A stretch of 64,000 nt of DNA, taken from NCBI GenBank assembly GCA_020152595.1, contig JAIGNY010000323.1, positions 18,812 through 82,811 of the forward strand, read 5' to 3'. The notes beneath the pieces were generated by a model, which searched no databases, was not told the origin of the DNA, and saw only the letters and a program-made list of their open reading frames with translations. Position numbers and translations under genes: made by a program. This DNA comes from Chiridota heheva. Lineage: Eukaryota; Echinodermata; Holothuroidea; Apodida; Chiridotidae. This document shows, piece by piece, positions 4,251-38,295 of the stretch (positions are counted from its first letter, which is position 1; the number at the start of each line of letters is the position of its first letter).

Positions 4251-4343
4251 CTATGGACAATTTCTATATCTTGTTTGAAAGACTATTAAAATCAGAGAAT
4301 ATCAACTTTTGAATTATGAATTTAGGTTGATCAAAGTCTAATT

Positions 4344-8786: not shown

Positions 8787-8846
8787 CATCCATCCATCCA
8801 TCCATCCATCCATCCATCCATCCATCCATCCATCCATCCATCCATC
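8787..8846. repeat. (CATC)15 microsatellite
   Basis: Fifteen perfect or near-perfect CATC units. The Ser-Ile-His-Pro peptide readings across it are repeat artefacts. Confidence 0.95.
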
Positions 8847-11873: not shown

Positions 11874-12847
<974 letters not shown>

Positions 12848-16300: not shown

Positions 16301-18447
16301 TTTGATCTGGTCCTTCCCTCCCAAACACACTCACACTTAAGCTATAATATTTGATCTGGTCCTTCCCAAAACACACTCACACTTAAGCTATAATATTTGA
16401 TCTGGTCCTTCCCTAAACACACTCACACTTAAGCTATAATATTGTATCTGCTCCTTCCCCAAACACACTCACACTTAAGCTATACTATTTGATCTGGTCC
16501 TTCCCCAAACACACTCACACTTAAGCTATAATGTTGTATCTGCTCCTTCCCCAAACACACTCACACTTAAGCTATAATATTTGATCTGGTCCTTCCCTAA
16601 ACACACTCACACTTAAGCTATAATATTTGATCTGGTCCTTCCCTAAACACACTCACAGCTTAGCTATAATTTTATCTGCTCCTTCCCAAACACACTCACA
16701 CTTAAGCTATAATATTGTATCTGCTCCTTCCCAAACACACTCACACTTAAGCTATAATATTTGATCTATAATATTTGTCCTTCCCAAACACACTCACACT
16801 TAAGCTATAATATTTGTATCTGTCCTTCCCCAAAACACACTCACACTTAAGCTATAATATTGTATCTGCTCCTTCCCAAACACACTCACACTTAAGCTAT
16901 AATATTGTATCTGCTCCTTCCCCAAACACACTCACACTTAAGCTATAATATTGTATCTGCTCCTTCCCAAACACACTCACACTTAAGCTATAATATTGTA
17001 TCTGCTCCTTCCCAAACACACTCACAAACACACTCACATATTGCTATCTATTCCTTTCCCAAACACACTCACACTTAAGCTATAATATTGTATCTGCTCC
17101 TTCCCAAACACACTCACACTTAAGCTATAATATTTGTATCTGTCCTTCCTTCCTGGTCCTTCCCAAACACACTCACACTTAAGCTATAATATTTGTATCT
17201 GCTCCTTCCCAAACACACTCACACTTAAGCTATAATATTTATCTCCCCAAACTCCTTATTTGATCTGCTCCCCAAACACACTCACACTTAAGCTATAATA
17301 TTTGATCTGGTCCTTCCTCCCCAAACACACTCACACAGCTATAATATTGTATCTGGTCCTTCCCAAACACACTCACACTTAAGCTATAATATTTGATCTG
17401 GTCCTCCCAAACACACTCACACATTTGATCTGCTCCTCCCAAACAGCTATAATATTTGTATCTGCTCCTTCCCAAACACACTCACACTTAAGCTATAATA
17501 TTTGATCTGCTCCTTCCCAAACACACTCACACTTAAGCTATAATATTTATCTGCTCCTTCCCAAACACACTCACACTTAAGCTATAATATTTATCTGCTC
17601 CTCCCCAAACACACTCACACTTAAGCTATAATATTTATCTGTCCTTCCCAAACACACTCACACTTAAGCTATAATATTGTATCTGCTCCTTCCCAAACAC
17701 ACTCACACTTCAGCTATAATATTGTATCTGCTCCTTCCCAAACACACTCACACTTCAGCTATAATATTGTATCTGCTCCTTCCCAAACACACTCACACTT
17801 AAGCTATAATATTTGATCTGGTCCTTCCCCAAACACACTCACACTTAAGCTATAATATTTGATCTGGTCCTTCCCCAAACACACTCACACTTAAGCTATA
17901 ATATTTGATCTGGTCCTTCCCCAAACACACTCACACTTAAGCTATAATATTTGATCTGCTCCTTCCCAAACACACTCACACTTAAGCTATAATATTTGAT
18001 CTGGTCCTTCCCCAAACACACTCACACTTAAGCTATAATATTGTATCTGCTCCTTCCCCAAACACACTCACACTTAAGCTATAATATTTATCTGCTCCTT
18101 CCCAAACACACTCACACTTAAGCTATAATATTTATCTGTCCTTCCCAAACACACTCACACTTAAGCTATAATATTGTATCTGCTCCTCCCCAAACACACT
18201 CACACTTCAGCTATAATATTGTATCTGCTCCTTCCCAAACACACTCAGACTTCAGCTATAATATTCTATCTGCTCCTTCCCAAACACACTCACACTTAAG
18301 CTATAATATTCTATCTGCTCCTTCCCAAACACACTCACACTTAAGCTATAATATTCTATCTGCTCCTTCCCCAAACACACTCACACTTAAGCTATAATAT
18401 TGTATCTGCTCCTTCCCAAACACACTCACACTTAAGCTATAATATTG
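13383..18447 (+). repeat. ~46-bp satellite array, ~110 copies (5 kb)
   Basis: The unit reads AAACACACTCACACTTAAGC, then TATAATATT, then either GTATCTGCTCC or TGATCTGGTCC, then TTCCC(C). Length varies between 45 and 47 bp. Two monomer types (GTATCTGC and TGATCTGG) are intermixed. The flanks are regular. The inner zones at about 14200-14480 and 16640-17480 contain truncated, fused and slipped units. Minus-strand frames such as SVFGKEQIQYYSLSV are repeat translations. Confidence 0.97.
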
Positions 18448-19576
18448 CTTCTTTATTCAATTCATTATTGTTTTTTATTTTAAAATTCGTTTTATTATCT
18501 ATGACATTTTAGTAATGTTGCCTTAGAAATTTCAAACCGCTGCGAATTGCAATAAACAATGGACAGCTTTTGCCGTAGTTCCCACCAGCCAACGCCGCAA
18601 GATAATTTGCGGACGAGGCGATATTTTAGTCGCTGGAGGAGTCCAATTCTATTCTGTCTGCCGGCAAAGGGATGCAAAGGAAAGCTGTAATTCCATGAAA
18701 ATGTCCATGCATACGTCTCATATTTGAAATCAACGAAAAACATGAGAAAAGAGTCAAGTAAAAGATGCAATATTTTGCTTTAAAAATGTTTAAATCTAAC
18801 ATAGAACACAGAGACTAAGTAAAGAAAATATCTTCCTTATGAAAATATATAATAACCCTCAATAATGTATCGATAATTTGACGATGTCCAACAGGAGGGT
18901 GTGTCCCCTCTAGTCCAATCATTTTGCAACACCAACTTCAGAACCATGAAAAGAAGTATTATTTCATGTAACACAAGTTGACAGGACATAGTTCCTCCTT
19001 GGTCTGATATGGAAATAACTTCTTCTTTGAAATTAAAAATAAATTTACATAACAAAAGACTGAAACAATTTGTATTTTCATGTCAATATGGAATCTGTCT
19101 GTCTGGAAGTTGGAAAATAGTTGCATGGCTTACCGGTGTTAACCTGTTAACTTTATATTTAAATGAGGTCTTTTCTTCGTGCAATCAAAATGTAATGTCA
19201 GTAAAAGTATATTTCCTGTACATTGTCAGATTGTACCGAAACAAGAAAATCTCCCAAACCCAAAATTATAGAAAGCATACTGAGCATATTTGAATAAGCA
19301 ATGAAAAAGTCATTTAGGAGTCAAAACGCGATTCTGCGCGGGAGAATACACGATAGCTTTTTGAAGGATAATTCTAACATGTCTAACATTCTAAAGTATA
19401 TGTAGATAATTCAACAATATTTTAAGCTATTTTTTATTTATATATTCCATCGTGCTATTGTATTCCCATATCTTTTGATTTTAATGATTTCAAAATAAGT
19501 TGAGGGTGCCCCTAAAGTTCTTTGACACCTTTTCAATCTTCATGTATTCCGCTGCCCCTTGTTTCATCTCATACTC
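18448..19576. other. Non-coding stretch between arrays, no gene seen
   Basis: AT-rich unique sequence. Small frames at 18495-18770 (-) and 19009-19293 (+) show no known domain and no supporting splice context. Confidence 0.5.
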
Positions 19577-19708
19577 TTTCAACAGTCCGGTCCACGCAGT
19601 CAATCGGGAGAGCTATTTTAATTTGGAAAGATGCATTATGGGTTATAATGACAAAAATCTCTTGATCGGGAGATCTCCCGTTCGGGAGCGTGGACCGGAC
19701 TGGTTGAA
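19577..19708. mobile_element. CAGTCCGGT-ended MITE, copy A
   Basis: CAGTCCGGTCCACGC at 19583-19597 is the exact inverse of GCGTGGACCGGACTG ending at 19702. The inversion extends outward through TTCAA(C). Internal ATCGGGAG and CTCCCG blocks are also inverted. The inner GATGCATTATGGG block matches GATGCATTGTGG at 61430, linking it to copy C. The length of ~130 bp leaves no room for a transposase. Confidence 0.85.
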
Positions 19709-19866
19709 GTTACACCATTTTAGAGTCTTGAAAGGATTAAAATGTACCCGTAAACCGTCCACTGCCTTCACCCAGGGAGTGTCTATGCAGCTTTTTGGAT
19801 TTTGTTTTTGTAGGGGAGGTGGGGAGAAGGGGGAATTGAATCCTTAAATATACATCTTTTTCAAAC

Positions 19867-20040
19867 AGCCACCTCCATACCTTGGTCCAAAATTGAAGGT
19901 TTGTGATCCTTAGTTATTGATTTTGGTTCAAACTTTAATATCTTTGGCTCTCAATTTTAAATGTTGGTCCAAAAGTTGAGGTTTCGGGTTCAAAAATTGA
20001 AGATTATTGGTCCAAAATGGAAGAAAAATTGAACAGTTTT
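19867..20040. repeat. Degenerate ~30-bp repeats (GGTCCAAAATTGAAG-like)
   Basis: GGTCCAAAATTGAAGG and GGTTCAAAAATTGAAG-type motifs recur about every 30-33 bp with heavy divergence, the remains of an old minisatellite. Confidence 0.5.
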
Positions 20041-20103
20041 GATACATTTTCGATGCAATTTCGTGACAAGTTCTGTTTATTTGGGGGGGAATTTGTCTCT
20101 TTC

Positions 20104-20152
20104 TAACCCCCCTGCCCTTTCCCCCTCCCCTTCCCCTCCCCTCCCTCCTTCA
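20104..20152. repeat. C-rich tract (G-quadruplex potential on minus strand)
   Basis: Contains runs CCCCCC, CCC, CCCCC, CCCC, CCCC and CCCC separated by one to seven bases, enough for a minus-strand G-quadruplex. Confidence 0.6.
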
Positions 20153-20361
20153 CCTCACTCACTTACTTTTTGGACAAGAGCCCATGTCCTCACACTTACC
20201 AAATACAATTTACGACCGTAGATGTGACATAGCGGCTAGTTTAATTTCAGTCGTGAAGAAACTGGAAGTAAGGGAATAAGATTTTGAAATTTCTTTACAA
20301 TATTGTTTATTTTAAAGTTCTTAAGATGAACTGACCACTTAACTAATCCTTTCAGGAACGT

Positions 20362-20429
20362 GCGCTCACTTTAAGGACCCTGGCATGGACAGGATGCGCT
20401 CACTTTAAGGACCCTGGCATGGACAGGAT
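20362..20429 (+). repeat. Perfect 34-bp tandem duplication
   Basis: GCGCTCACTTTAAGGACCCT plus GGCATGGACAGGAT occurs twice in a row (20362-20395 and 20396-20429). A related GCTCTCACTTTAAGTTCCCT appears near 50870, so the block may be part of a dispersed repeat. Confidence 0.9.
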
Positions 20430-20774
20430 TATACGATTCTGTTTGATGTTTTGCTCTTCATTGAATGCTGTTTTTACACTAAGCTGATAAGTGTCACAGC
20501 CTACACTGATTAAAGTGTTTCAAAACATAGAGAAGGGACCTACAATACCCATTGCTGGAACTCCAACGCGTAATTATTCTTAGCACCACCCGCTACAGAC
20601 TGACAGATTTGGGCTGTTTGGCCTGTTTAGCATGTTTGGCTCTGCGTTGCTCTGTTTGGCTCTGTCTGGCTCTGTTTGGCATGTTTAGCATATTTGGCTC
20701 TGTCTTGCTCCGTTTGGTTCTGTCTGGCTCTGTTTGGCATGTGTAGCATGTTTGGTTCTGTCTGGCTCTGTTTG

Positions 20775-23700
20775 GCATGTTTAGCATATTTGGCTCTGTC
20801 TTGCTCCGTTTGGTTCTGTCTGGCTCTGTTTGGCATGTTTAGCATGTTTGGTTCTGTCTGGCTCTGTTTGGCATGTTTAGCATGTTTGGCTCTGTCTTGC
20901 TCCGTTTGGTTCTGTCTGGCTCTGTTTGGCATGTGTAGCATGTTTGGTTCTGTCTGGCTCTGTTTGGCATGTTTGGCTCTGTCTTGCTCTGTTTGGCATG
21001 TTTAGCATGTTTGGCTCTGTCTTGCTCTGTCTGGCTCTGTTTGGTATGTTTAGCATGTTTGGCTCTGTCTTGCTCTGTTTGGCTCTGTCTTGCTCTGTTT
21101 GGTTCTGTCTGGCTCTGTTTGGCATGTTTAGCATGTTTGGCTCTGTCTTGCTCCGTTTGGTTCTGTCTGGCTCTGTTTGGCATGTTTAGCATGTTTGGCT
21201 CTGTCTTGCTCTGTTTGGTTCTGTCTGGCTCTGTTTGGCATGTTTAGCATGTTTGGCTCTGTCTTGCTCCGTTTGGTTCTGTCTGGCTTTGTTTGGCATG
21301 TTTAGCATGTTTGGCTCTGTCTTGCTCCGTTTGGTTCTGTCTGGCTCTGTTTGGCATGTTTAGCATGTTTGGCTCTGTCTTGCTCTGTATGGTTCTGTTT
21401 GGCATGTTTAGCATGTTTGGCTCTGTCTTGCTCCGTTTGGTTCTGTCTGGCTCTGTCTGGCTCTGTTTGGCATGTTTAGCATGTTTAGCATGTTTGGCTC
21501 TGTCTTGCTCCGTTTGGTTCTGTCTGGCTCTGTTTGGCATGTTTAGCATGTTTGGTTCTGTCTTGCTCTGTATGGTTCTGTTTGGCATGTTTATCATGTT
21601 TGGCTCTGTTTTGCTCCGTTTGGTTCTGTCTGGCACTGTTTGGTTCTGTCTGGCTCTGTTTGGCTCTGTCTGGCTCTGTTTAGCATGTTTGGTTCTGTCT
21701 TGCTCTGTTTGGTTCTGTCTGGCTCTGTTTGGCTCTGTCTGGCTCTGTTTGGTTCTGTCTGGCTCTGTTTGGTATGTTTAGCATGTTTGGTTCTGTCTTG
21801 CTCTGTTTGGTTCTGTCTGGCTCTGTTTGGCTCTGTCTGGTTCTGTTTGGCTTGTTTAGCATGTTTGGCTCTGTCTTGCACCGTTTGGTTCTGTCTGGCT
21901 CTGTTTGGTATGTTTAGCATGTTTCGCTCTGTCTTGCTCCGTTTGGTTCTGTCTGGCTCTGTTTGCCATGTTTAGCATGTTTGGTTCTGTCTTGCTCTGT
22001 TTGGTTCTGTCTGGCTCTGTTTTGTTTGCTCTGTCTGGCTCTGTTTAGCATGTTTGGCTCTGTCTTGCTCTGTTTGGTTCTGTCTGGCTCTGTTTAGCAT
22101 GTTTGGTTCTGTCTGACTCTGTTTGGAATGTTTAGCATGTTTGGCTCTGTCTTTCTCCGTTTGGTTCTGTCTGGCTCTGTTTGGTATGTTTAGCATGTTT
22201 GGTTCTGTCTGGCTCTGTTTGGCTTGTTTAGCATGTTTGGTTCTGTTTTGCTCCGTTTGGTTCTGTCTGGCTCTGTTTGGCATGTTTAGCATGTTTGGTT
22301 CTGTCTTGCTCTGTCTGGCTCTGTTTGGCAGGTTTAGCATGTTTGGTTATGTCTTGCTCTGTCTAGCTCTGTTTGGCATGTTTAGCATGTTTGGCTCTGT
22401 CTTGCTCCTCTGTCTGGCTCTGTTTGGCTTGTTTAGCATGTTTGGCTCTGTCTTGCTCTGTTTGGCTCTGTTTGGCTTGTTTAGCATGTTTGGCTCTGTC
22501 TGGCTCTGTTTGGCTCTGTCTGGCTCTGTTTGGCTTGTTTAGCATGTTTGGCTCTCTTTTGCTTTGTTTGGCTCTGTCTGGCTCTGTTTGGTATGTTTAG
22601 CATGTTTGGCTCTGTCTTGCTCTGTTTGGTTCTGTCTTGCTCTGTTTGGCATGTTTAGCATGTTTGGCTCTGTCTTGCTCTGTTTGGTTCTGTCTGGCTC
22701 TGTTTGGCTTGTCGAGCATGTTTGGCTCTGTCTTGCTCTGTTTGGTTCTGTCTGGCTCTGTTTGGTATGTTTAGTATGTTTGGCTCTGTCTTGCTCTGTT
22801 TGGTTCTGTCTGGCTCTGTTTGGCTTGTCGAGCATGTTTGGCTCTGTCTTGCTCTGTTTGGTTCTGTCTGGCTCTGATTAGCATGTTTGGCTCTGTCTTG
22901 CTCTGTTTGGTTCTGTCTGGCTCTGTTTGGTTATGTTTGGCTCTGTTTGGTATGTTTAGCATGTTTGGCTCTGTCTTGCTCTGTTTGGTTCTGTCTTGCT
23001 CAGTTTGGTTCTGTCTGGCTCTGTTTGGTATGTTTAGCATGTTTGGTTCTGTCTTGCTCTGTTTGGTATGTTTAGCATGTTTGGTTCTGTCTGGCTCTGT
23101 TTGGCATGTTTAGCATGTTTGGCTCTGTCTTGCTATGTTTGGTTCTGTCTTGCTCAGCTTGGTTCTGTCTGGCTCTGTTTGGTATGTTTAGCATGTTTGG
23201 TTCTGTCTGGCTCTGTTTGGTATGTTTAGCATGTTTGGCTCTGTGTTGCTCTGTTTGGTTCTGTCTGGCTCTGCTTGGTATGTTTAGCATGTTTGGCTCT
23301 GTCGTGCTCTGTTTGGTTCTGTCTGGCTCTGTTTGGCTCTGTCTGGCTCTGTTTGGTATGTTTAGCATGTTTGGTTCTGTCTTGCTCTGTTTGGTATGTT
23401 TAGCATGTTTGGTTCTGTCTGGCTCTGTTTGGCATGTTTAGCATGTTTGGCTCTGTCTTGCTATGTTTGGTTCTGTCTTGCTCAGCTTGGTTCTGTCTGG
23501 CTCTGTTTGGTATGTTTAGCATGTTTGGTTCTGTCTGGCTCTGTTTGGTATGTTTAGCATGTTTGGCTCTGTGTTGCTCTGTTTGGTTCTGTCTGGCTCT
23601 GCTTGGTATGTTTAGCATGTTTGGCTCTGTCGTGCTCTGTTTGGTTCTGTCTGGCTCTGTTTGGCTCTGTCTGGCTCTGTTTGGTATGTTTAGCTTGTTT

Positions 23701-24183
23701 GACTCTGTCTTGCTCTGTTTGGTTCTGTCTGGCTCTGTTTGGCATGTTTAGCATGTTTGGCTCTGTCTTGCTCTGTTTGGTTCTGTCTGGCTCTGTTTGG
23801 CATGTTTAGCATGTTTGGCTCTGTCTTGCTCTGTTTGGTTCTGTTTGGCATGTTTAGCATGTTTAGCATGTTTGGTTCTGTCTTGCTCCGTTTGGATCTG
23901 TCTGGCTCTGTTTAGCATGTTTGGCTCTGTCTTGCTCCGTTTGGTTCTGTCTGGCTCTGTTTGGCATGTGTAGCATGTTTGGTTCTGTCTTGCTCTGTAT
24001 GGTTCTGTTTGGTATGTTTAGCATGTTTGGCTCTGTGTTGCTCTGTTTGGTTCTGTCTGGCTCTGCTTGGCATGTTTAGCATGTCTGACTCTGTCTTACT
24101 CCGTTTGGTTCTGTCTGGCTCTGTTTGGCATGTGTAGCATGTTTGGCTCTGTCTTGCTGCGCTTGGATCTGTCTGGCTCTGTT
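20775..24183 (+). repeat. 3.41-kb higher-order duplication, first copy
   Basis: Distinctive variants in this block recur 3408-3411 bp downstream. Examples are GCTTGTCGAGCATG at about 22707 and 26116, CTTGCTCAGCTTGG at about 23147 and 26556, and ATGTCTGACTCTGTCTTACT at 24081 and 27489. Only sparse substitutions and small indels separate the copies. Confidence 0.88.
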
Positions 24184-27100
24184 TGGCATGTTTAGCATAT
24201 TTGGCTCTGTCTTGCTCCGTTTGGTTCTGTCTGGCTCTGTTTGGCATGTTTAGCATGTTTGGTTCTGTCTGGCTCTGTTTGGCATGTTTAGCATGTTTGG
24301 CTCTGTCTTGCTCCGTTTGGTTCTGTCTGGCTCTGTTTGGCATGTGTAGCATGTTTGGTTCTGTCTGGCTCTGTTTGGCATGTTTGGCTCTGTCTTGCTC
24401 TGTTTGGCATGTTTAGCATGTTTGGCTCTGTCTTGCTCTGTCTGGCTCTGTTTGGTATGTTTAGCATGTTTCGCTCTGTCTTGCTCTGTTTGGCTCTGTC
24501 TTGCTCTGTTTGGTTCTGTCTGGCTCTGTTTGGTATGTTTAGCATGTTTGGCTCTGTCTTGCTCCGTTTGGTTCTGTCTGGCTCTGTTTGGCATGTTTAG
24601 CATGTTTGGCTCTGTCTTGCTCTGTTTGGTTCTGTCTGGCTCTGTTTGGCATGTTTGGCATGTTTGGCTCTGTCTTGCTCCGTTTGGTTCTGTCTGGCTT
24701 TGTTTGGCATGTTTAGCATGTTTGGCTCTGTCTTGCTCCGTTTGGTTCTGTCTGGCTCTGTTTGGCATGTTTAGCATGTTTGGCTCTGTCTTGCTCTGCA
24801 TGGTTCTGTTTGGCATGTTTAACATGTTTGGCTCTGTCTTGCTCCGTTTGGTTCTGTCTGGCTCTGTCTGGCTCTGTTTGGCATGTTTAGCATGTTTAGC
24901 ATGTTTGGCTCTGTCTTGCTCCGTTTGGTTCTGTCTGGCTCTGTTTGGCATGTTTAGCATGTTTGGTTCTGTCTTGCTCTGTATGGTTCTGTTTGGCATG
25001 TTTATCATGTTTGGCTCTGTTTTGCTCCGTTTGGTTCTGTCTGGCACTGTTTGGTTCTGTCTGGCTCTGTTTGGCTCTGTCTGGCTCTGTTTAGCATGTT
25101 TGGTTCTGTCTTGCTCTGTTTGGTTCTGTCTGGCTCTGTTTGGCTCTGTCTGGCTCTGTTTGGTTCTGTCTGGCTCTGTTTGGTATGTTTAGCATGTTTG
25201 GTTCTGTCTTGCTCTGTTTGGTTCTGTCTGGCTCTGTTTGGCTCTGTCTGGTTCTGTTTGGTTCTGTCTGGCTCTGTTTGGCTCTGTCTTGCACCGTTTG
25301 GTTCTGTCTGGCTCTGTTTGGTATGTTTAGCATGTTTCGCTCTGTCTTGCTCCGTTTGGTTCTGTCTGGCTCTGTTTGCCATGTTTAGCATGTTTGGTTC
25401 TGTCTTGCTCTGTTTGGTTCTGTCTGGCTCTGTTTTGCTCTGTCTGGCTCTGTTTAGCATGTTTGGCTCTGTCTTGCTCTGTTTGGTTCTGTCTGGCTCT
25501 GTTTAGCATGTTTGGTTCTGTCTGACTCTGTTTGGAATGTTTAGCATGTTTGGCTCTGTCTTTCTCCGTTTGGTTCTGTCTGGCTCTGTTTGGTATGTTT
25601 AGCATGTTTGGTTCTGTCTGGCTCTGTTTGGCTTGTTTAGCATGTTTGGTTCTGTTTTGCTCCGTTTGGTTCTGTCTGGCTCTGTTTGGCATGTTTAGCA
25701 TGTTTGGTTCTGTCTTGCTCTGTCTGGCTCTGTTTGGCATGTTTAGCATGTTTGGTTATGTCTTGCTCTGTCTAGCTCTGTTTGGCATGTTTAGCATGTT
25801 TGGCTCTGTCTTGCTCCTCTGTCTGGCTCTGTTTGGCTTGTTTAGCATGTTTGGCTCTGTCTTGCTCTGTTTGGCTCTGTTTGGCTTGTTTAGCATGTTT
25901 GGCTCTGTCTGGCTCTGTTTGGCTCTGTCTGGCTCTGTTTGGCTTGTTTAGCATGTTTGGCTCTCTTTTGCTTTGTTTGGCTCTGTCTGGCTCTGTTTGG
26001 TATGTTTAGCATGTTTGGCTCTGTCTTGCTCTGTTTGGTTCTGTCTTGCTCTGTTTGGCATGTTTAGCATGTTTGGCTCTGTCTTGCTCTGTTTGGTTCT
26101 GTCTGGCTCTGTTTGGCTTGTCGAGCATGTTTGGCTCTGTCTTGCTCTGTTTGGTTCTGTCTGGCTCTGTTTGGTATGTTTAGTATGTTTGGCTCTGTCT
26201 TGCTCTGTTTGGTTCTGTCTGGCTCTGTTTGGCTTGTCGAGCATGTTTGGCTCTGTCTTGCTCTGTTTGGTTCTGTCTGGCTCTGATTAGCATGTTTGGC
26301 TCTGTCTTGCTCTGTTTGGTTCTGTCTGGCTCTGTTTGGTTATGTTTGGCTCTGTTTGGTATGTTTAGCATGTTTGGCTCTGTCTTGCTCTGTTTGGTTC
26401 TGTCTTGCTCAGTTTGGTTCTGTCTGGCTCTGTTTGGTATGTTTAGCATGTTTGGTTCTGTCTTGCTCTGTTTGGTATGTTTAGCATGTTTGGTTCTGTC
26501 TGGCTCTGTTTGGCATGTTTAGCATGTTTGGCTCTGTCTTGCTATGTTTGGTTCTGTCTTGCTCAGCTTGGTTCTGTCTGGCTCTGTTTGGTATGTTTAG
26601 CATGTTTGGTTCTGTCTGGCTCTGTTTGGTATGTTTAGCATGTTTGGCTCTGTGTTGCTCTGTTTGGTTCTGTCTGGCTCTGCTTGGTATGTTTAGCATG
26701 TTTGGCTCTGTCGTGCTCTGTTTGGTTCTGTCTGGCTCTGTTTGGCTCTGTCTGGCTCTGTTTGGTATGTTTAGCATGTTTGGTTCTGTCTTGCTCTGTT
26801 TGGTATGTTTAGCATGTTTGGTTCTGTCTGGCTCTGTTTGGCATGTTTAGCATGTTTGGCTCTGTCTTGCTATGTTTGGTTCTGTCTTGCTCAGCTTGGT
26901 TCTGTCTGGCTCTGTTTGGTATGTTTAGCATGTTTGGTTCTGTCTGGCTCTGTTTGGTATGTTTAGCATGTTTGGCTCTGTGTTGCTCTGTTTGGTTCTG
27001 TCTGGCTCTGCTTGGTATGTTTAGCATGTTTGGCTCTGTCGTGCTCTGTTTGTTCTGTCTGGCTCTGTTTGGCTCTGTCTGGCTCTGTTTGGTATGTTTA

Positions 27101-27592
27101 GCTTGTTTGACTCTGTCTTGCTCTGTTTGGTTCTGTCTGGCTCTGTTTGGCATGTTTAGCATGTTTGGCTCTGTCTTGCTCTGTTTGGTTCTGTCTGGCT
27201 CTGTTTGGCATGTTTAGCATGTTTGGCTCTGTCTTGCTCTGTTTGGTTCTGTTTGGCATGTTTAGCATGTTTAGCATGTTTAGTTCTGTCTTGCTCCGTT
27301 TGGATCTGTCTGGCTCTGTTTAGCATGTTTGGCTCTGTCTTGCTCCGTTTGGTTCTGTCTGGCTCTGTTTGGCATGTGTAGCATGTTTGGTTCTGTCTTG
27401 CTCTGTATGGTTCTGTTTGGTATGTTTAGCATGTTTGGCTCTGTGTTGCTCTGTTTGGTTCTGTCTGGCTCTGCTTGGCATGTTTAGCATGTCTGACTCT
27501 GTCTTACTCCGTTTGGTTCTGTCTGGCTCTTTTTGGCATGTGTAGCATGTTTGGCTCTGTCTTGCTGCGCTTGGATCTGTCTGGCTCTGTTT
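24184..27592 (+). repeat. 3.41-kb higher-order duplication, second copy
   Basis: Collinear with 20775-24183. Differences seen by eye include GGCAGGTTTAGC against GGCATGTTTAGC (22329 and 25738) and loss of one G pair near 27050. Such low divergence indicates a recent event or an assembly duplication. Confidence 0.88.
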
Positions 27593-30500
27593 GGCATGTG
27601 TAGCATGTTTGGTTCTGTCTGGCTCTGTTTGGCATGTTTAGCATGTTTGGTTCTGTCTTGCTCTGTATGGTTCTGTTTGGCATGTGTAGCATGTTTGGTT
27701 CTGTTTGGCTCTCTTTGGAATGTTTAGCATGTTTGGCTCTGTCTTGCTCTGTTTGGTTCGGTCTGGCTCTGTTTGGCATGTTTAGCATGTTTAGCATGTT
27801 TGGCTCTGTCTTGCTCCGTTTGGTTCTGTCTGGCTCTGTTTGGTATGTTTAGCATGTTTGGCTCTGTCTTGCTCTGTTTGGTTCTGTCAGGCTCTGTTTG
27901 GCATGTGTAGCATGTTTGGTTCTCTCTGGCTCTGTTTGGCATGTTTAGCATGTTTGGTTCTGTCTTGCTCCGTTTGGTTCTGTCTGGCTCTGTTTGGTAT
28001 GTTTAGCAAGTTTGGCTCTGTCTTGCTCTGTTTGGTTCTGTCTGGCTCTTTTTGGCTCTGTCTGGCTCTGTTTGGTATGTTTAGCATGTTTGGCTCTGTC
28101 TTGCTCTGTTTGGTTCTGTCTGGCTCTTTTTGGTTCTGTCTGGCTCTGTGTGGCATGTTTAGCATGTTTGGTTCTGTCTTGCTCTGTATGGTTCTGTTTG
28201 GCATGTTTAGCATGTTTGGCTCTGCTTTGCTCCGTTTGGTTCTGTCTGGCACTGTTTGGTTCTGTCTGGCTCTGTTTGGCTCTGTCTGGCTCTGTTTGGT
28301 ATGTTTAGCATGTTTGGCTCTGTCTTGCTCTGTTTGGTTCCGTCTGGCTCTGTTTGGCTCTGTCTGGCTCTGTTTGGTATGTTTAGCATGTTTGGCTCTG
28401 TCTTGCTCTGTTTGGTTCTGTTTGGTTCTGTCTGGCTCTGTTTAGCATGTTTGGCTCTGTCTTGCTCCGTTTGGTTCTGTCTGGCTCTATTTGGCATGTT
28501 TAGCATGTTTAGCATGTTTGGTTCTGTCTTGCTCCGTTTGGTTCTGTCTGGCTCTGTTTAGCATGTTTGGTTCTGTCTTGCTCTGTATGGTTCTGTTTGG
28601 CATGTTTAGCATGTTTGGCTCTGTTTTGCTCCGTTTGGTTCTGTCTGGCACTGTTTGGTTCTGTCTGGCTCTGTTTGGCTCTGTCTGGCTCTGTTTAGCA
28701 TGTTTGGCTCTCTCTTGCTCTGTTTGGTTCTGTTTGGCTCTGTCTTGCTCTGTTTGGTTCTGTCTGGCTCTGTTTGGTATGTTTAGCATGTTTGGTTCTG
28801 TCTTGCTCTGTTTGGTTCTGTCTGGCTCTGTTTGGCATGTTTAGCATGTTTGGCTTTGTCTTGCTCCGTTTGGTTCTGTCTGGCTCTGTTTGGTATGTTT
28901 AGCATGTTTGGCTCTGTCTTGCTCCGTTTGGTTCTGTCTGGCTCTGTTTGGTATGTTTAGCATGTTTGGCTCTGTCTTGCTCTGTTTGGTTCTGTCTGGC
29001 TCTGTTTGGCATGTTTAGCATATTTGGTTCTGTCTTGCTCCGTTTGGTTCTGTCTGGCTCTGTTTGGTATGTTTAGCATGTTTGGCTTTGTCTTGCTCCG
29101 TTTGGTTCTGTCTGGCTCTGTTTGGTATGTTTAGCATGTTTGGCTTTGTCTTGCTCCGTTTGGTTCTGTCTGGCTCTGTTTGGTATGTTTAGCATGTTTG
29201 GCTCTGTCTTGCTCTGTTTGGTTCTGTCTGGTTCTGTTTGGCTCTGTCTGGCTCTGTTTGGTTCTGTCTTGCTCTGTTTGGTATGTTTAGCATGTTTGGC
29301 TCTGTCTTGCTCCGTTTGGTTCTGTCTTGCTCTGTTTGGTATGTTTAGCATGTTTGACTCTGTCTTGCCCTGTTTGGTTCTGTGTGGCTCTGTTTGGCTC
29401 TGTCTGGCTCTGTTTGGTATGTTTAGCATGTTTGGCTCTGTCTTGCTCTGTTTGGTTCTGTCTGGCTCTGTCTGGCTCTGTTTGGTATGTTTAGCATGTT
29501 TGGCTCTGTCTTGCTCTGTTTGGTTCTGTCTGGCTCTGTCTGGCTCTGTTTAGCATGTTTGGCTCTGTCTTGCTCCGTTTGGTTCTGTCTGGCTCTGTTT
29601 GGCATGTTTAGCATGTTTAGCATGTTTGGTTCTGTCTTGCTCCGTTTGGTTCTGTCTGGCTCTGTTTGGCATGTTTAGCATGTTTGGTTCTGTCTTGCTC
29701 TGTATGGTTCTGTTTTACATGTTTAGCATGTTTGGCTCTGTTTTGCTCCGTTTGGTTCTGTCTGGCACTGTTTGGTTCTGTCTGGCTCTGTTTGGCTCTG
29801 TCTGGCTCTGTTTGGTATGTTTAGCATGTTTGGCTCTGTCTTGCTCTGTTTGGTTCCGTCTGGCTCTGTTTGGCTCTGTCTGGCTCTGTTTGGTATGTTT
29901 AGCATGTTTGGCTCTGTCTTGCTCTGTTTGGTTCTGTCTGGCTCTGTTTGGCATGTTTAGCATGTTTGGCTCTGTCTTGCTCCGTTTGGTTCTGTCTTGC
30001 TCTGTTTGGCATGTTTAGCATGTTTAGCATGTTTGGTTCTGTCTTGCTCCGTTTGGTTCTGTCTGGCTCTGTTTGGCATGTTTGGTTCTGTCTTGCTCTG
30101 TATGGTTCTGTTTGGCATGTTTAGCATGTTTGGCTCTGTTTTGCTCCGTTTGGTTCTGTCTGGCACTGTTTGGTTCTGTCTGGCTCTGTGTGGCTCTGTC
30201 TGGCTCTGTTTAGCATGTTTGGCTCTGTCTTGCTCTGTTTGGTTCTGTTTGGCTCTGTCTTGCTCTGTTTGGTTCTGTCTGGCTCTGTTTGGTATGTTTA
30301 GCATGTTTGGCTCTGTCTTGCTCTGTTTGGTTCTGTCTTGCTCAGTTTGGTTCTGTCTGGCTCTGTTTGGTATGTTTAGCATGTTTGGTTCTGTCTTGCT
30401 CTGTTTGGTATGTTTAGCATGTTTGGCTCTGTCTTGCTATGTTTGGTTCTGTCTTGCTCAGTTTGGTTCTGTCTGGCTCTGTTTGGTATGTTTAGCATGT

Positions 30501-33025
30501 TTGGTTCTGTCTGGCTCTGTTTGGTATGTTTAGCATGTTTGGCTCTGTGTTGCTCTGTTTGGTTCTGTCTGGCTCTGTTTGGCTCTGTCTGGCTCTGTTT
30601 GGTATGTTTAGCATGTTTGGCTCTGTCTTGCTCTGTTTGGTTCTGTCTGGCTCTGTTTGGCATGTTTAGCTCTGTCTTGCTCTGTTTGGTTCTGTCTGGC
30701 TCTGTTTGGCATGTTTAGCATGTTTGGCTCTGTCTTGCTCTGTTTGGTTCTGTCTGGCTCTGTTTGGCATGTTTAGCATGTTTAGCATGTTTGGTTCTGT
30801 CTTGCTCCGTTTGGTTCTGTCTGGCTCTGTTTGGTATGTTTAGCATGTTTGGCTCTGTCTTGCTCCGTTTGGTTCTGTCTTGCTCTGTTTGGTTCTGTCT
30901 GGCTCTGTTTGGTTCTGTCTGGCTCTGTTTAGCATGATTGGCTCTGTCTTGCTCCGTTTGGTTCTGTCGGGCTCTGTTTGGCATGTGTAGCATGTTTGGT
31001 TCTGTCTGGCTCTGTTTGGCATGTTTAGCATGTTTGGTTCTGTCTTGCTCTGTATGGTTCTGTTTGGTATGTTTAGCATGTTTGGCTCTGTGTTGCTCTG
31101 TTTGGTTCTGTCTGGCTCTGTTGGCATGTTTAGCATGTCTGACTGTGTCTTGCTCCGTTTGGTTCTGTTTGGCATGTGTAGCATGTTTGGCTCTGTCTTG
31201 CTGCGCTTGGTTCTGTCTGGCTCTGTTTAGCATGTTTGGCTCTGTCTTGCTCTGTTTGGTTCTGTCTTGCTCAGTTTGGTTCTGTCTGGCTCTGTTTGGT
31301 ATGTTTAGCATGTTTGGTTCTGTCTTGCTCTGTTTGGTATGTTTAGCATGTTTGGCTCTGTCTTGCTATGTTTGGTTCTGTCTTGCTCAGTTTGGTTCTG
31401 TCTGGCTCTGTTTGGTATGTTTAGCATGTTTGGTTCTGTCTGGCTCTGTTTGGTATGTTTAGCATGTTTGGCTCTGTGTTGCTCTGTTTGGTTCTGTCTG
31501 GCTCTGCTTGGTATGTTTAGCATGTTTGGCTCTGTCTTGCTCTGTTTGGTTCTGTCTGGCTCTGTTTGGCTCTGTCTGGCTCTGTCTGGCTCTGTTTGGT
31601 ATGTTTAGCATGTTTGGCTCTGTCTTGCTCTGTTTGGTTCTGTCTGGCTCTGTTTGGCATGTTTAGCATGTTTGGCTCTGTCTTGCTCTGTTTGGTTCTG
31701 TCTGGCTCTGTTTGGCATGTTTAGCATGTTTGGCTCTGTCTTGCTCTGTTTGGTTCTGTCTGGCTCTGTTTGGCATGTTTGGCATGTTTAGCATGTTTGG
31801 CTCTGTCTTGCTCTGTTTGGTTCTGTCTGGCTCTGTTTGGCTCTGTCTGGCTCTGTTTGGTTCTGTCTGGCTCTGTTTGGCTCTGTCTGGCTCTGTTTGG
31901 TTCTGTCTGGCTCTGTTTAGCATGTTTGGCTCTGTCTTGCTCCGTTTGGTTCTGTCGGGCTCTGTTTGGCATGTGTAGCATGTTTGGTTCTGTCTGGCTC
32001 TGTTTGGCATGTTTGGTTCTGTCTTGCTCTGTATGGTTCTGTTTGGTATGTTTAGCATGTTTGGCTCTGTGTTGCTCTGTTTGGTTCTGTCTGGCTCTGC
32101 TTGGCATGTTTAGCATGTCTGACTGTGTCTTGCTCCGTTTGGTTCTGTTTGGCATGTGTAGCATGTTTGGCTCTGTCTTGCTGCGCTTGGTTCTGTCTGG
32201 CTCTGTTTAGCATGTTTGGCTCTGTCTTGCTCCGTTTGGTTCTGTCTGGCTCTGTTTGGCATGTGTAGCATGCTTGGTTCTGTCTGGCTCTGTTTGGCAT
32301 GTTTAGCATGTTTGGTTCTGTCTTGCTCTGTATGGTTCTGTTTGGCATGTGTAGCATGTATGGTTCTGTCTGGCTCTGTTTGGAATGTTTAGCATGTTTG
32401 GCTCTGTCTTGCTCTGTTTGGTTCGGTCTGGCTCTGTTTGGCATGTTTAGCATGTTTAGCATGTTTGGTTCTGTCTGGCTCCGTTTGGTTCTGTCCGGCT
32501 CTGTTTGGTATGTTTAGCATGTTTGGCTCTGTCTTGCTCTGTTTGGTTCTGTCAGGCTCTGTTTGGCTCTGTTTGGCATGTGTAGCATGTTTGGTTCTCT
32601 CTGGCTCTGTTTGGCATGTTTAGCATGTTTGGTTCTGTCTGGCTCTGTTTGGTATGTTTAGCATGTTTGGTTCTGTCTTGCTCCGTTTGGTCCTGTCTGG
32701 CTCTGTTTGGTATGTTTAGCATGTTTGGCTCTGTCTTGCTCTGTTTGGTTCTGTCTGGCTCTTTTTGGCTCTGTCTGGCTCTGTTTGGTATGTTTAGCAT
32801 GTTTGGCTCTGTCTTGCTCTGTTTGGTTCTGTCTGGCTCTGTTTGGCATGTTTAGCATGTTTGGCTCTGTCTTGCTCTGTTTGGTTCTGTCTGGCTCTGT
32901 TTGGCATGTTTAGCATGTTTGGCTTTGTCTTGCTCCGTTTGGTTCTGTCTGGGTCTGTTTGGTATGTTTAGCATGTTTGGCTCTGTCTTGCTCCGTTTGG
33001 TTCTGTCTGGCTCTGTTTGGTATGT

Positions 33026-33960
33026 TTAGCATGTTTGGCTCTGTCTTGCTCTGTTTGGTTCTGTCTGGCTCTGTTTGGCATGTTTAGCATGTTTGGTTTT
33101 GTCTTGCTCCGTTTGGTTCTGTCTGGCTCTGTTTGGTATGTTTAGCATGTTTGGATCTGTCTTGCTCTGTTTGGTTCTGTCTGGCTCTGTTTGGCTCTGT
33201 CTGGCTCTGTTTGGTTCTGTCTTGCTCTGTTTGGTATGTTTAGCATGTTTGGCTCTGTCTTGCTCCGTTTGGTTCTGTCTTGCTCTGTTTGGTATGTTTA
33301 GCATGTTTGGCTCTGTATTGCCCTGTTTGGTTCTGTCTGGCTCTGTTTGGCTCTGTCTGGCTCTGTTTGGTATGTTTAGCATGTTTGGCTCTGTCTTGCT
33401 CTGTTTGGTTCTGTCTGGCTCTGTTTGGCTCTGTCTGGCTCTGTTTGGTATGTTTAGCATGTTTGGCTCTGTCTTGCTCTGTTTGGTTCTGTCTGGCTCT
33501 GCTTAGCATGTTTGGCTCTGTCTTGCTCCGTTTGGTTCTGTCTGGCTCTGTTTGGCATGTTTAGCATGTTTGGTTCTGTCTTGCTCCGTTTGGTTCTGTC
33601 TGGCTCTGTTTAGCATGTTTGTTTCTGTCTTGCTCTGTATGGTTCTGTTTGGCATGTTTAGCATGTTTGGCTCTGTTTTGCTCCGTTTGGTTTTGTCTGG
33701 CACTGTTTGGTTCTGTCTGGCTCTGTTTGGCTCTGTCTGGCTCTGTTTGGTATGTTTAGCATGTTTGGCTCTGTCTTGCTCTGTTTGGTTCCGTCTGGCT
33801 CTGTTTGGCTCTGTCTGGCTCTGTTTGGTATGTTTAGCATGTTTGGCTCTGTCTGGCTCTGTTTGGTTCTGTCTGGCTCTGTTTGGCATGTTTAGCATGT
33901 TTGGCTCTGTCTTGCTCCGTTTGGTTCTGTCTGGCTCTGTTTGGCATGTTTAGCATGTTT
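33026..33960 (+). repeat. ~1-kb higher-order duplication, first copy
   Basis: Monomer-variant order matches 34017-34960 at an offset of 991 bp that grows to 1000 bp, including GTATTGCCCTGTTTGG (33316 and 34307) and CATGTTTGTTTCTG (about 33615 and 34615). Confidence 0.85.
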
Positions 33961-34016
33961 AGCATGTTTGGCTCTGTCTTGCTCCGTTTGGTTCTGTCTG
34001 GCTCTGTTTGGTATGT

Positions 34017-34960
34017 TTAGCATGTTTGGCTCTGTCTTGCTCTGTTTGGTTCTGTCTGGCTCTGTTTGGCATGTTTAGCATGTTTGGTTTTGTCTTGCTC
34101 CGTTTGGTTCTGTCTGGCTCTGTTTGGTATGTTTAGCATGTTTGGCTCTGTCTTGCTCTGTTTGGTTCTGTCTGGCTCTGTTTGGCTCTGTCTGGCTCTG
34201 TTTGGTTCTGTCTTGCTCTGTTTGGTATGTTTAGCATGTTTGGCTCTGTCTTGCTCCGTTTGGTTCTGTCTTGCTCTGTTTGGTATGTTTAGCATGTTTG
34301 GCTCTGTATTGCCCTGTTTGGTTCTGTCTGGCTCTGTTTGGCTCTGTCTGGCTCTGTTTGGTATGTTTAGCATGTTTGGCTCTGTCTTGCTCTGTTTGGT
34401 TCTGTCTGGCTCTGTTTGGCTCTGTCTGGCTCTGTTTGGTATGTTTAGCATGTTTGGCTCTGTCTTGCTCTGTTTGGTTCTGTCTGGCTCTGTTTGGCAT
34501 GTTTAGCATGTTTGGCTCTGTCTTGCTCCGTTTGGTTCTGTCTGGCTCTGTTTGGCATGTTTAGCATGTTTGGTTCTGTCTTGCTCCGTTTGGTTCTGTC
34601 TGGCTCTGTTTAGCATGTTTGTTTCTGTCTTGCTCTGTATGGTTCTGTTTGGCATGTTTAGCATGTTTGGCTCTGTTTTGCTCCGTTTGGTTTTGTCTGG
34701 CACTGTTTGGTTCTGTCTGGCTCTGTTTGGCTCTGTCTGGCTCTGTTTGGTATGTTTAGCATGTTTGGCTCTGTCTTGCTCTGTTTGGTTCCGTCTGGCT
34801 CTGTTTGGCTCTGTCTGGCTCTGTTTGGTATGTTTAGCATGTTTGGCTCTGTCTTGCTCCGTTTGGTTCTGTCTGGCTCTGTTTGGCATGTTTAGCATGT
34901 TTAGCATGTTTGGTTCTGTCTTGCTCCGTTTGGTTCTGTCTGGCTCTGTTTGGCATGTTT
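34017..34960 (+). repeat. ~1-kb higher-order duplication, second copy
   Basis: Collinear partner of 33026-33960. The offset change from 991 to 1000 bp reflects a small decamer-scale indel near 33500 and 34495. Confidence 0.85.
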
Positions 34961-35482
34961 AGCATGTTTGGTTCTGTCTTGCTCTGTATGGTTCTGTTTG
35001 GCATGTTTAGCATGTTTGGCTCTGTTTTGCTCCGCTTGGTTCTGTCTGGCACTGTTTGGTTCTGTCTGGCTCTTTTTGGCTCTGTCTGGCTCTGTTTAGC
35101 ATGTTTGGCTCTGTCTTGCTCTGTTTGGTTCTGTCTGGCTCTGTTTGGCTTGTTTAGCATGTTTGGCTCTGTCTTGCTATGTTTGGTTCTGTCTGGCTCT
35201 GTTTAGCATGTCTGGCTCTGTCTTGCTCTGTTTGGTTCTGTCTGGCTCTGTTTGGCATGTTTAGCATGTTTGGCTCTGTCTTGCTCCGTTTGGTTCTGTC
35301 TGGCTCTGTTGGAATGTTTAGCATGTTTGGCTCTGTCTTGCTCTGTTTGGTTCTGTCTGGCTCTGTTTGGAATGTTTAGCATGTTTGGCTCTGTCTTGCT
35401 CTGCTTGGTTCTGTCTGGCTCTGTTTGGAATGTTTAGCATGTTTGGCTCTGTCTTGCTCAGTTTGGTTCTGTCTGGCTCTGT

Positions 35483-36284
35483 TTGGCATGTTTAGCATGT
35501 TTGGCTCTGTCTTGCTCTGTTTGGTTCTGTCTGGCTCTGTTTGGCATGTTTAGCATGTTTGGCTCTGTCTTGCTCCGTTTGGTTCTGTCTGGCTCTGTTG
35601 GAATGTATAGCATGTTTGGCTCTGTCTTGCTCTGTTTGGTTCTGTCTGGCTCTGTTTGGAATGTTTAGCATGTTTGGCTCTGTCTTGCTCTGTTTGGTTC
35701 TGTCTGGCTCTGTTTGGAATGTTTAGCATGTTTGGCTCTGTCTTGCTCTGTTTGGTTCTGTCTGGCTCTGTTTGGCTTGTCGAGCATGTTTGGCTCTGTC
35801 TTGCTCTGTTTGGTTCTGTCTTGCTCTGTTTGGCATGTTTAGCATGTTTGGCTCTGTCTTGCTCTGTTTGGTTCTGTCTGGCTCTGTTTGGCATGTTTAG
35901 CATGTTTGGCTCTGTCTTGCTCCGTTTGGTTCTGTCTGGCTCTGTTTGGAATGTATAGCATGTTTGGCTCTGTCTTGCTCTGTTTGGTTCTGTCTGGCTC
36001 TGTTTGGAATGTTTAGCATGTTTGGCTCTGTCTTGCTCTGTTTGGTTCTGTCTGGCTCTGTTTAGCATGTTTGGCTCTGTCTTGCTCCGTTTGGTTCTGT
36101 CTGGCTCTGTTGGAATGTTTAGCATGTTTGGCTCTGTCTTGCTCTGTTTGGTTCTGTCTTGCTCAGTTTGGTTCTGTCTGGCTCTGTTTGGTATGTTTAG
36201 CATGTTTGGTTCTGTCTGGCTCTGGTTGGTATGTTTAGCATGTTTGGCTCTGTCTTGCTCAGTTTGGTTCTGTCTGGCTCTGTT
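35483..36284 (+). repeat. ~0.8-kb higher-order duplication within the 58-bp array
   Basis: Variant order (GTTGGAATGT, CTTGTCGAGCATG and neighbours) recurs 801 bp downstream in 36284-36800. Confidence 0.75.
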
Positions 36285-37545
36285 TGGCATGTTTAGCATG
36301 TTTGGCTCTGTCTTGCTCTGTTTGGTTCTGTCTGGCTCTGTTTGGCATGTTTAGCATGTTTGGCGCTGTCTTGCTCCGTTTGGTTCTGTCTGGCTCTGTT
36401 GGAATGTTTAGCATGTTTGGCTCTGTCTTGCTCTGTTTGGTTCTGTCTGGCTCTGTTTGGAATGTTTAGCATGTTTGGCTCTGTCTTGCTCTGTTTGGTT
36501 CTGTCTGGCTCTGTTTGGAATGTTTAGCATGTTTGGCTCTGTCTTGCTCTGTTTGGTTCTGTCTGGCTCTGTTTGGCTTGTCGAGCATGTTTGGCTCTGT
36601 CTTGCTCTGTTTGGTTCTGTCTTGCTCTGTTTGGCATGTTTAGCATGTTTGGCTCTGTCTTGCTCTGTTTGGTTCTGTCTGGCTCTGTTTGGCATGTTTA
36701 GCATGTTTGGCTCTGTCTTGCTCCGTTTGGTTCTGTCTGGCTCTGTTTGGAATGTTTAGCATGTTTGGCTCTGTCTTGCTCTGTTTGGTTCTGTCTGGCT
36801 CTGTTTGGCTTGTCGAGCATGTTTGGCTCTGTCTTGCTCTGTTTGGTTCTGTCTGGCTCTGTTTGGCATGTTTAGCATGTTTGGCTCTGTCTTGCTCTGT
36901 TTGGTTCTGTCTGGCTCTGTTTGGTTCTGTCTGGCTCTGTTTGGCATGTTTAGCATGTTTGGCTCTGTCTTGCTCTGTTTGGTTCTGTCTTGCTCAGTTT
37001 GGTTCTGTCTGGCTCTGTTTGGTATGTTTAGCATGTTTGGTTCTGTCTGGCTCTGGTTGGTATGTTTAGCATGTTTGGCTCTGTGTTGCTCTGTTTGGTT
37101 CTGTCTGGCTCTGTTTGGTTCTGTCTTGCTCTGTTTGGCTCTGTGTTGCTCTGTTTGGTTCTGTCTGGCTCTGTTTGGTTCTGTCTGGCTCTGTTTGGTA
37201 TGTTTAGCATGTTTGGTTCTGTCTTGCTCCGTTTGGTTCTGTCTGGCTCTGTTTGGTATGTTTAGCATGTTTGGCTCTGTCTTGCTCTGTTTGGTTCTGT
37301 CTGGCTCTGTTTGGCATGTCTAGCATGTTTGGTTCTGTCTCGCTCTGTTTGGCATGTTTAACATGTTTGGTTCTGTCTGGCTCTGTTTGGTTCTGTCTGG
37401 CTCTGTTTGGCATGTTTAGCATGTTTGGTTCTGTCTGGCTCTGTTTGGCATGTTTAGCATGTTTGGCTCTGTCTTGCTCTGTTTGGTTCTGTCTGGTTCT
37501 GTTTGGTTCTGTCTGACTCTGTCTGGCTCTGTTTGGTTGTGTCCA

Positions 37546-38295
37546 TGTTTTACAAATATCCTTAGACCGGGAGAGACGTGTTAAGATAATAATGACACAA
37601 CTGAGCATTGCATAAAGTACCCCTTGAAAGTGATTTTCCCTACAAACCATACTGTTATACCCGCAGTACACTATTTTTGTTTAATCGCCGCCCTCATGAT
37701 GTACAAACTAACTTTAATTGTTCAGGCTTATTAACCTGTTAGCGTCTATTAATTGCAAAGCCTTCAATACAATCAAACTAACATATTTTTGAGTCGCAAA
37801 AGGCGGGAATGACGCACATGTAGGCCTTCATAATATGAAAGCATAAAAGGTGACAAAATTTTAGATGAACAACATTTCAAAAAAGGCGCCCGTAAGTCGG
37901 CACATAATTTCAGCTTCAGGGGGCGTGAGACTTAACGCAAACAGAAGAACAAAGACGCTGCCTTCGAAGTCAAACAAGGAAATTAATACGCATCTTCTTC
38001 ATACAGTGGTCTTTTTAACCATCAAAACAGAACAACTTTTGTTATCAAATTTTTCCCATATACTAAGCAGATTGCGTGCAAAGTTAACATTTTACATTTT
38101 CCAAAACATTGACAGGCTATATACAACAATATAGAGCCCAAAGTATGTAACGTTGTACGTCCAAAGAACTGCTGTGTACAGGTGTAGTAGTTCCTTGGTG
38201 CATCCATGGAAGGAAGGCCGGAAGGGCTTCAAATAGCCGATTGATATATGGTAACACTCATCAGGGTTGGTATATTGGCTTTTCATGATATTTCA
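37546..38295. other. Non-coding stretch, no gene seen
   Basis: Unique sequence after the 17-kb array. The small frame at 37865-38134 has no recognisable domain. Confidence 0.5.

What the first reader, a model, noticed from the sequence alone, without database searches (positions are those of the whole stretch)
20611..37545. 17-kb array with three nested repeat scales
Visible in the sequence: a ~10-bp subunit (TCTGTYTKGY) builds a ~58-bp unit bounded by CATGTTTAGCATG, and these units sit inside duplicated blocks of 0.33, 0.8, 1.0, 1.5 and 3.4 kb. A pure decamer origin followed by segmental amplification would explain this. Satellite evolution at so many scales in one array is uncommon.
Basis: seen in the sequence. 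Interest (0 to 1): 0.7.

Follow-up and report, generated by a model that had tools for sequence, protein, structure and literature searches.

The report
Satellite array grown from transposon end
The 17-kb repeat is real and looks like an overgrown copy of the short 10-base repeats at the end of a jumping-gene family; other copies in the same genome hold the same site with about 3, 5, 30, 160 and 1,750 repeats, so the growth of a satellite can be followed step by step.

Summary
The array (20614-37536) is real: 1,747 subunits of 9-10 bp, a 58-bp unit made of six of them, and duplicated blocks at offsets of 0.33, 0.8, 1.0, 1.5, 3.4 and about 3.95 kb, beyond unit-shuffle controls. The large offsets are one-off duplications, not periodic higher-order repeats.

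The new part is the origin. The window lies in an unnamed 1.1-Gb genome. The array sits just inside the right terminus (37541-37561) of a dispersed element. That terminus recurs at 87 places, 0 in the reversed control; neighbouring copies mostly face outward (9 of 13 pairs) and 7 of 12 pairings show a 9-bp target-site duplication. This is the anatomy of a foldback-type DNA transposon with decamers in its inverted ends.

The same site elsewhere holds about 3, 3, 5, 9, 30, 30, 44, 149 and 162 units. Other copies built other units (10, 20, 30, 33 bp). The 58-bp form is confined to the window, C1029 and C2772 (support 0.999), apart from pieces of it in C374.

'Decamer origin, then segmental amplification' is supported; 'uncommon' is not (mouse major satellite). 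Most likely no function beyond the decamers' original role in the transposon end.

The parts
20394..20610 (+). inner flank of the element (inner domain of the end), directly left of the array
   Evidence: recurs next to decamer arrays at C2772, C1029, C477, C1512, C1478 (two copies) and C3431
20614..37536 (+). decamer/58-bp array, the overgrown tandem-repeat domain of the element end
   Evidence: Tandem Repeats Finder; 1,747 subunits, 131 full hexamers
20757..24191 (+). 3.41-kb tandem duplication, copy 1
   Evidence: offset 3408-3411, pieces 99.5-99.9% identical
24168..27599 (+). 3.41-kb tandem duplication, copy 2 (overlaps copy 1 by 24 bp)
22947..23723 (+). 328-bp duplication, also present in copy 2 of the 3.41-kb block
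28129..30338 (+). pair of about 0.7-kb blocks at offset 1515-1516 (28129-28823, 29645-30338)
   Evidence: 98.4-98.6% identity
28789..34011 (+). pair of blocks at offset about 3.95 kb (28789-30076, 32742-34011)
   Evidence: 96.4 and 98.3% identity in two pieces
32964..34902 (+). 1.0-kb tandem duplication (32964-33902, 33955-34902)
   Evidence: 99.5-99.8% identity in two pieces
35405..36864 (+). pair of 0.66-kb blocks at offset 801 (35405-36063, 36206-36864)
   Evidence: 98.6% identity
37541..37561 (+). right terminus of the element (GTCCATGTTTTACAAATATCC)
   Evidence: 2 substitutions from the common form; terminus found at 87 places with at most 2 mismatches, 0 in the control (the window's own copy is listed)
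37562..37651 (+). piece of a second dispersed repeat abutting the element; homology with the other copies of the segment ends here

Best explanation
The array is the subterminal tandem repeat of one end of a foldback-type DNA transposon, overgrown in place. Shown: a dispersed element ends in (GG)TCCATGTTTTACAAAYGCCC, has inverted termini and 9-bp target-site duplications, and in the copies examined carries decamers of the TTTGGSTCNG type just inside a terminus. In the subfamily with the inner flank 20394-20610 the decamer number at that site runs from about 3 to about 1,750. Inferred: the decamers began as a few repeats in the inverted end (by analogy, accessory transposase-binding sites) and grew by slippage and in-register unequal exchange. 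In one lineage (window, C1029, C2772) a six-subunit stretch of 58 bp became the amplified unit. In the window copy the array then grew about tenfold, by exchange over longer homology, leaving duplicated blocks of different ages, with the 3.41-kb duplication among the youngest. The window copy is a one-ended remnant in a larger duplicated segment, most likely immobile and without a coding role.
For: Terminus at 87 places, 0 in the reversed control; outward orientation in 9 of 13 adjacent pairs; 9-bp duplications of 7/9 or better in 7 of 12 pairings, 2.4% in mismatched flanks, and in 5 of the 10 pairings whose flanks I had not inspected before. Complete 560-bp copy C875 with a 50-bp inverted repeat, 86% identical, and 7.6-kb copy C1926 with decamer arrays at both ends. 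Series of unit numbers at one site. Different higher units on the same decamer: 20 bp in C875 and C3594, 30 bp in C1926, 58 bp here, and a 33-bp unit across the right edge in C1576. Flank tree grouping window, C1029 and C2772 (support 0.999). Whole-subunit length steps. Simulations in which one in-register duplication/deletion process gives similar block statistics in some runs.
Against: The tree is rooted only by C1478 (223 columns); C374 has mixed units and only 100 columns. Five of 12 pairings lack a convincing target-site duplication (6, 5, 4, 4, 2 of 9). One adjacent pair faces inward and three lie on one strand. No transposase was found: the MULE model PF10551 has 2 matches, neither in an element pair, and five middle-region frames of C1478 have no Pfam match above cut-off. 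The window copy has only one terminus, so its own target-site duplication cannot be tested. C1029 and C2772 have indels in 14-15% of subunits against 0.6% in the window; this is unexplained and could reflect sequence quality. No simulation run matches block statistics, number of variants and hexamer retention together.
Confidence: 0.78

Rival explanations
1. Contraction rather than growth: the ancestral element end carried a long 58-bp array, and the short decamer-only copies are collapsed remnants.
For: The short copies could in principle be deletion products; C374 has mixed units and its contig ends inside the array.
Against: The typical nonamer is absent from the decamer-only copies (0 matches within 1 edit in C586, C1417, C477, C1478a), copies with unrelated inner flanks also have plain decamers (C1594, C1926, C875, C3594), and the most distant copy by flank is decamer-only.
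Confidence: 0.1
2. The array is an ordinary satellite that arose independently, and its place next to the terminus motif is a chance insertion or hitch-hiking.
For: In the window only one terminus is present, and the whole region is a duplicated segment.
Against: The same edge joins decamers to the terminus at many unlinked loci, with different inner flanks, and complete copies with inverted ends contain decamers.
Confidence: 0.05
3. The length and the 3.41-kb pair are assembly artefacts.
For: C326 is a short contig of 82,811 bases; near-identical tandem copies are a classic place for errors; no reads are available.
Against: The copies differ by substitutions and small indels, and older blocks of 96-99% identity could not come from simple read duplication.
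Confidence: 0.05
4. The array has a sequence-based function of its own, for example coding or a regulatory or structural RNA.
For: Very low indel load within subunits in the window.
Against: 58 is not a multiple of 3, the longest listed frame in the array is 270 aa with no Pfam match, no Rfam match, and array length differs about 300-fold or more between copies.
Confidence: 0.02

Closest known systems
Tetris, a foldback transposon of Drosophila virilis that seeded a satellite (PMC4079207; abstract part and passages seen)
   Same: Inverted ends with an outer flanking domain, a tandem-repeat domain of variable copy number and an inner domain; repeats also form kb-size satellite-like arrays.
   Different: Repeat unit about 220 bp there, 10 bp here; no sequence comparison was made.
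Tm1, a Mutator/foldback family of root-knot nematodes (PMC3169594; abstract part and passages seen)
   Same: Composite inverted ends with a variable number of 13-15-bp tandem repeats just inside a short terminal motif, and 9-bp target-site duplications (45 of 53 complete elements have 8-10 bp there).
   Different: Some Tm1 copies encode a transposase; none was found here. No long array is mentioned in the passages seen. No sequence comparison was made.
Galileo of Drosophila willistoni (PMC4168063; passages seen)
   Same: Long inverted ends extended by internal direct tandem repeats that differ between copies.
   Different: About 140-bp repeats; P superfamily.
Mouse major satellite (PMC3218096; passages seen)
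   Same: Ladder of scales: 7-11-bp subunits, 58-60-bp unit, larger units.
   Different: A pericentromeric satellite with a true 234-bp unit; no transposon end is mentioned in the passages seen.
HINE elements (non-autonomous Helentrons) of the Pacific oyster (PMC7492417; abstract and one Results section read)
   Same: Transposons that spread satellite-like arrays as central repeats.
   Different: Subterminal inverted repeats, a 5' microsatellite and a 3' palindrome; the element here has terminal inverted repeats and 9-bp target-site duplications.

Membership tests
foldback-type DNA transposon | terminal inverted repeats | tested here: met
   9 of 13 adjacent terminus pairs face outward; C875 50 bp at 86%; C1926 array ends inverted
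foldback-type DNA transposon | short tandem repeats of variable number inside the inverted ends | tested here: met
   both ends in C1926 (167 and 24 decamer-like units) and C1478 (42 and 9); in C875 mainly at one end
foldback-type DNA transposon | target-site duplication | tested here: met
   9 bp, 7/9 or better in 7 of 12 pairings from 11 loci, null 97 of 4000
foldback-type DNA transposon | both ends present in the window copy itself | tested here: not met
   only the right terminus at 37541-37561; two weak 5-edit matches elsewhere; the window copy is a remnant
Mutator superfamily | 9-bp target-site duplication | tested here: met
   that this length is typical of Mutator-like elements is from recall and from the Tm1 paper
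Mutator superfamily | MULE-type transposase in the element | tested here: inconclusive
Helentron/HINE | rolling-circle type ends without target-site duplication | tested here: not met
   9-bp duplications and inverted termini; absence of duplications in Helentrons is from recall
satellite with higher-order repeats | a multi-monomer unit repeated periodically many times | tested here: inconclusive
   met for the 58-bp hexamer of decamers (292 copies by TRF; 105 of 255 units exactly 58 bp); not met for 0.8-3.4 kb, which occur mainly as pairs
satellite with higher-order repeats | chromosomal location and lineage distribution | not testable with these tools
   unnamed contigs, no relatives held

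The most novel reading that the evidence does not exclude
The decamers are transposase-binding sites, and breaks made there by the element's transposase, or another regional source of instability, drive array growth. The window's copy of the segment would be a hot locus: two unrelated minisatellites in it are hugely grown compared with its relatives, the 58-bp array about tenfold over C1029 and C2772, and a 45-bp unit from a single copy (in C1029, C2772 and C586) to more than 100.
Probability: 0.15. Interest if true: 0.7.

Novelty: new member of a known kind. Interest (0 to 1): 0.48.

Why it matters
How satellites start is usually inferred from mature arrays. Here one genome holds the same site in the same element with about 3, 5, 9, 30, 44, 150-160 and 1,750 units, and with several different higher units built on one decamer. 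That allows models of slippage, unequal exchange and required homology length to be tested against a graded natural series. It also adds a 10-bp case to the transposons whose inverted ends seed satellites.

Tried and rejected
Coding origin: frames broken, no Pfam hit for the one array frame tested. RNA families or tRNA in the window: none. The 28-bp array pattern in viral or prokaryote contigs: 0; first 7.4 kb of the array in plasmids: none. Those collections do not hold animal genomes, so this says nothing about lineage restriction. Four array strings in the paper library: 0 papers; the terminus was not searched there, so this does not show that the element is unpublished. Seed for the array in the window's own flanks: none above 20 shuffles; short versions were found in other copies instead. 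Gene context: an Ig V-set frame at 63275-63778 passes its cut-off; of the 111 frames listed I scanned 56 (7 only, 49, the Ig frame in both), and no other of these had a hit below 0.001. Kind of organism: not identified; 'animal-type' is inference from the Ig frame. Helentron reading: considered first, dropped after the target-site test. C3350 was tried with two left ends; one fits (8/9), the other not (5/9); both are in the 12, and the null may contain the true C3350 pairing, so 2.4% is probably too high. C875 and C1926 had been inspected; without them 5 of 10 pairings reach 7/9. The 70 places include clusters inside tandem arrays of C378 and C1576. Simulations (searches runs) have free parameters and scattered outcomes; they show that one process can suffice, not that it did. 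Seven 3-kb stretches were used only to separate the second dispersed repeat. A whole-array self BLAST printed no usable plus-strand rows and was replaced.
Full report
WHAT IS THERE. The window is AT-rich (GC 29-39% in 2-kb steps outside the array). It is contig C326:18812-82811 of an unnamed 1.1-Gb genome of 3,744 contigs; the contig is 82,811 bases long, so the window reaches its end. The array at 20614-37536 was confirmed by Tandem Repeats Finder, autocorrelation and a segment search. A parse into subunits gives 1,748 units, all but one exactly 10 or 9 bp. The order is close to a grammar: TTTGG-type decamers alternate with TCTKG-type decamers, and the second nonamer follows the first. The 58-bp unit is six subunits, including the 'boundary' motif. 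Exact 58-bp units are 105 of 255; most others differ by whole subunits.

BLOCKS. Ungapped searches give direct duplications at offsets 328, 801, 991-1000, 1515-1516, 3408-3411 and about 3,935-3,953 bp; a tiling search gives the same map and no inverted match. Identities run from about 96% to 99.9%, so the blocks differ in age. The 328-bp duplication lies in both copies of the 3.41-kb one and is therefore older. Eight shuffles of unit order never gave a block of 25 subunits; the array has 11. The large offsets are mainly pairs, so they are segmental duplications.

ORIGIN. A genome search with a piece of the array found other arrays. Fetched loci showed that the window, C1029 and C2772 share their left flank (about 87% by BLAST; 92-93% over projected columns that leave out insertions), and that C586, C1417, C374 and C477 are further copies. 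The sequence just after the array is shared by all seven. A larger stretch to the left (5000-9750) also has many copies, on C477, C1205, C580, C491, C2772, C3037, C1029, C943 and other contigs (40 of 1309 candidates scored). Array sizes differ greatly: 5 subunits in C477; 30 each in C586 and C1417 with no typical nonamer; at least 30 with mixed units in C374, whose contig ends in the array; 149 and 162 in C1029 and C2772 with 9 and 10 full hexamers; 1,747 with 131 hexamers in the window. A search with the inner flank found C1512, C1478 (two copies), C3431 and C3621 (C3621 not fetched). C1512 and C3431 have 3 decamer-like units each, C1478 has 44 (42 by pattern) and 9. C1512, C3431 and one C1478 copy also have the right edge; the other C1478 copy does not. 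Arrays with other flanks but the same right edge are pure decamer in C1594, 30-bp in C1926 and 33-bp in C1576.

THE ELEMENT. The right-edge motif occurs at 70 places with at most 3 mismatches, some of them clustered in tandem arrays, and the terminus in a shorter form at 87 places with at most 2; both reversed controls gave 0. Of 13 adjacent pairs within 10 kb on one contig, 9 face outward, 1 inward and 3 lie on the same strand. The flanks of 12 pairings from 11 loci show a 9-bp repeat at zero offset with 9/9 (C2539), 8/9 (C2774, C2496 and one of two pairings in C3350) or 7/9 (C3594, C875, C1926); the other five have 6, 5, 4, 4 and 2 matches. C875 is a complete 560-bp copy and C1926 a 7.6-kb copy with arrays at both ends. 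C1478 has two inner flanks facing each other about 4.7 kb apart. This is the domain order described for foldback transposons: terminus, tandem repeats, inner domain, middle (PMC4079207, passages). The window copy has only the right terminus and abuts a second dispersed repeat at 37562-37651, where homology with the other copies ends.

POLARITY. On projected flanks the window, C1029 and C2772 separate from C586, C1417, C374, C477 and C1478 with support 0.999, and C1029 with C2772 with 1.000. C374 has 100 columns and C1478 has 223, so the root is weak. Together with plain decamers in copies with other inner flanks, the simplest reading is decamers first, hexamer later, blocks last.

MECHANISM. 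Shown: length steps are mostly whole subunits; the large duplications are direct, and the two 3.41-kb copies overlap by 24 bp. Inferred: slippage and unequal exchange. A simulation of in-register duplication and deletion comes near the block statistics in some of 54 runs (37 segments, 4 large offsets, 100 variants in one; 27, 5 and 94 in another; observed 29, 4 and 94). It keeps almost none of the hexamer when one matching subunit suffices (18 of 20 runs at 0.02 or less, the others 0.37 and 0.33; observed 0.44). With six matching subunits and rare out-of-register events 6 of 10 runs keep 0.47-0.89 and 4 keep none. No run matched all measures.

A SECOND ARRAY. The 45-bp array at 13385-18447 (106 units by pattern) is a single unit in C1029, C2772 and C586, and no unit was found in C1417. 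So two unrelated minisatellites have grown in the window's copy of the segment. This is the basis of the novel case.

COMPARISON. Nearest in kind are Tetris, Tm1 and Galileo (inverted ends with tandem repeats), oyster HINE elements, and, for the ladder of units, mouse major satellite. A review names growth of tandem repeats inside transposons as a route to satellites (PMC12628747, passages). That the Drosophila FB element has about 10-bp repeats in its ends, that sea-urchin TU elements have 15-bp repeats, and that Rehavkus elements have 9-bp duplications and repeat-rich ends is recalled; the searches made for these and the one paper checked for Rehavkus did not confirm it. The finding is a new member of a known kind, with an unusually complete series of stages.

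Noticed in passing
13385-18447: 45-bp array (about 110 copies by TRF, 106 by pattern) that is a single 45-bp unit at the homologous place in C1029, C2772 and C586; none found in C1417.
   Followed up: partly
39675-43314: 30-bp array outside the shared segment; 30 is a multiple of 3, so long open frames appear (925 aa on the minus strand) and one scores as a pentapeptide-repeat protein, probably an artefact of the repeat. It also has long duplicated blocks (offsets 1312 and 1430).
   Followed up: no
L021 4684-5312 (C1576): 33-bp tandem unit that spans the array's right edge and the terminus itself, so here the junction was amplified.
   Followed up: no
C853:178598, 181777, 184957: Three same-strand copies of the terminus at 3.18-kb spacing, suggesting a tandem array of 3.18-kb units.
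   Followed up: no
37562-37651 and L045-L051: A second dispersed repeat, with more than 30 further matches in the genome (40 of 90 candidates scored), into or next to which the element was placed in all seven copies.
   Followed up: partly
5000-9750 and to 13424, 18399-20610: The left half of the window belongs to a larger duplicated segment found on many, mostly short, contigs at about 84-92% identity.
   Followed up: partly
L009 4570-6013 and L010 4384-5953: Indels in 14-15% of subunits, against 0.6% in the window; real decay or sequence quality.
   Followed up: no
63275-63778: Open frame with an immunoglobulin V-set domain above Pfam's cut-off.
   Followed up: no
4336-4926, 9755-10993, 11875-12452: Further tandem arrays of 54, 49 and 3 bp; together with the 45-, 58- and 30-bp arrays they make up a large part of the window.
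   Followed up: partly
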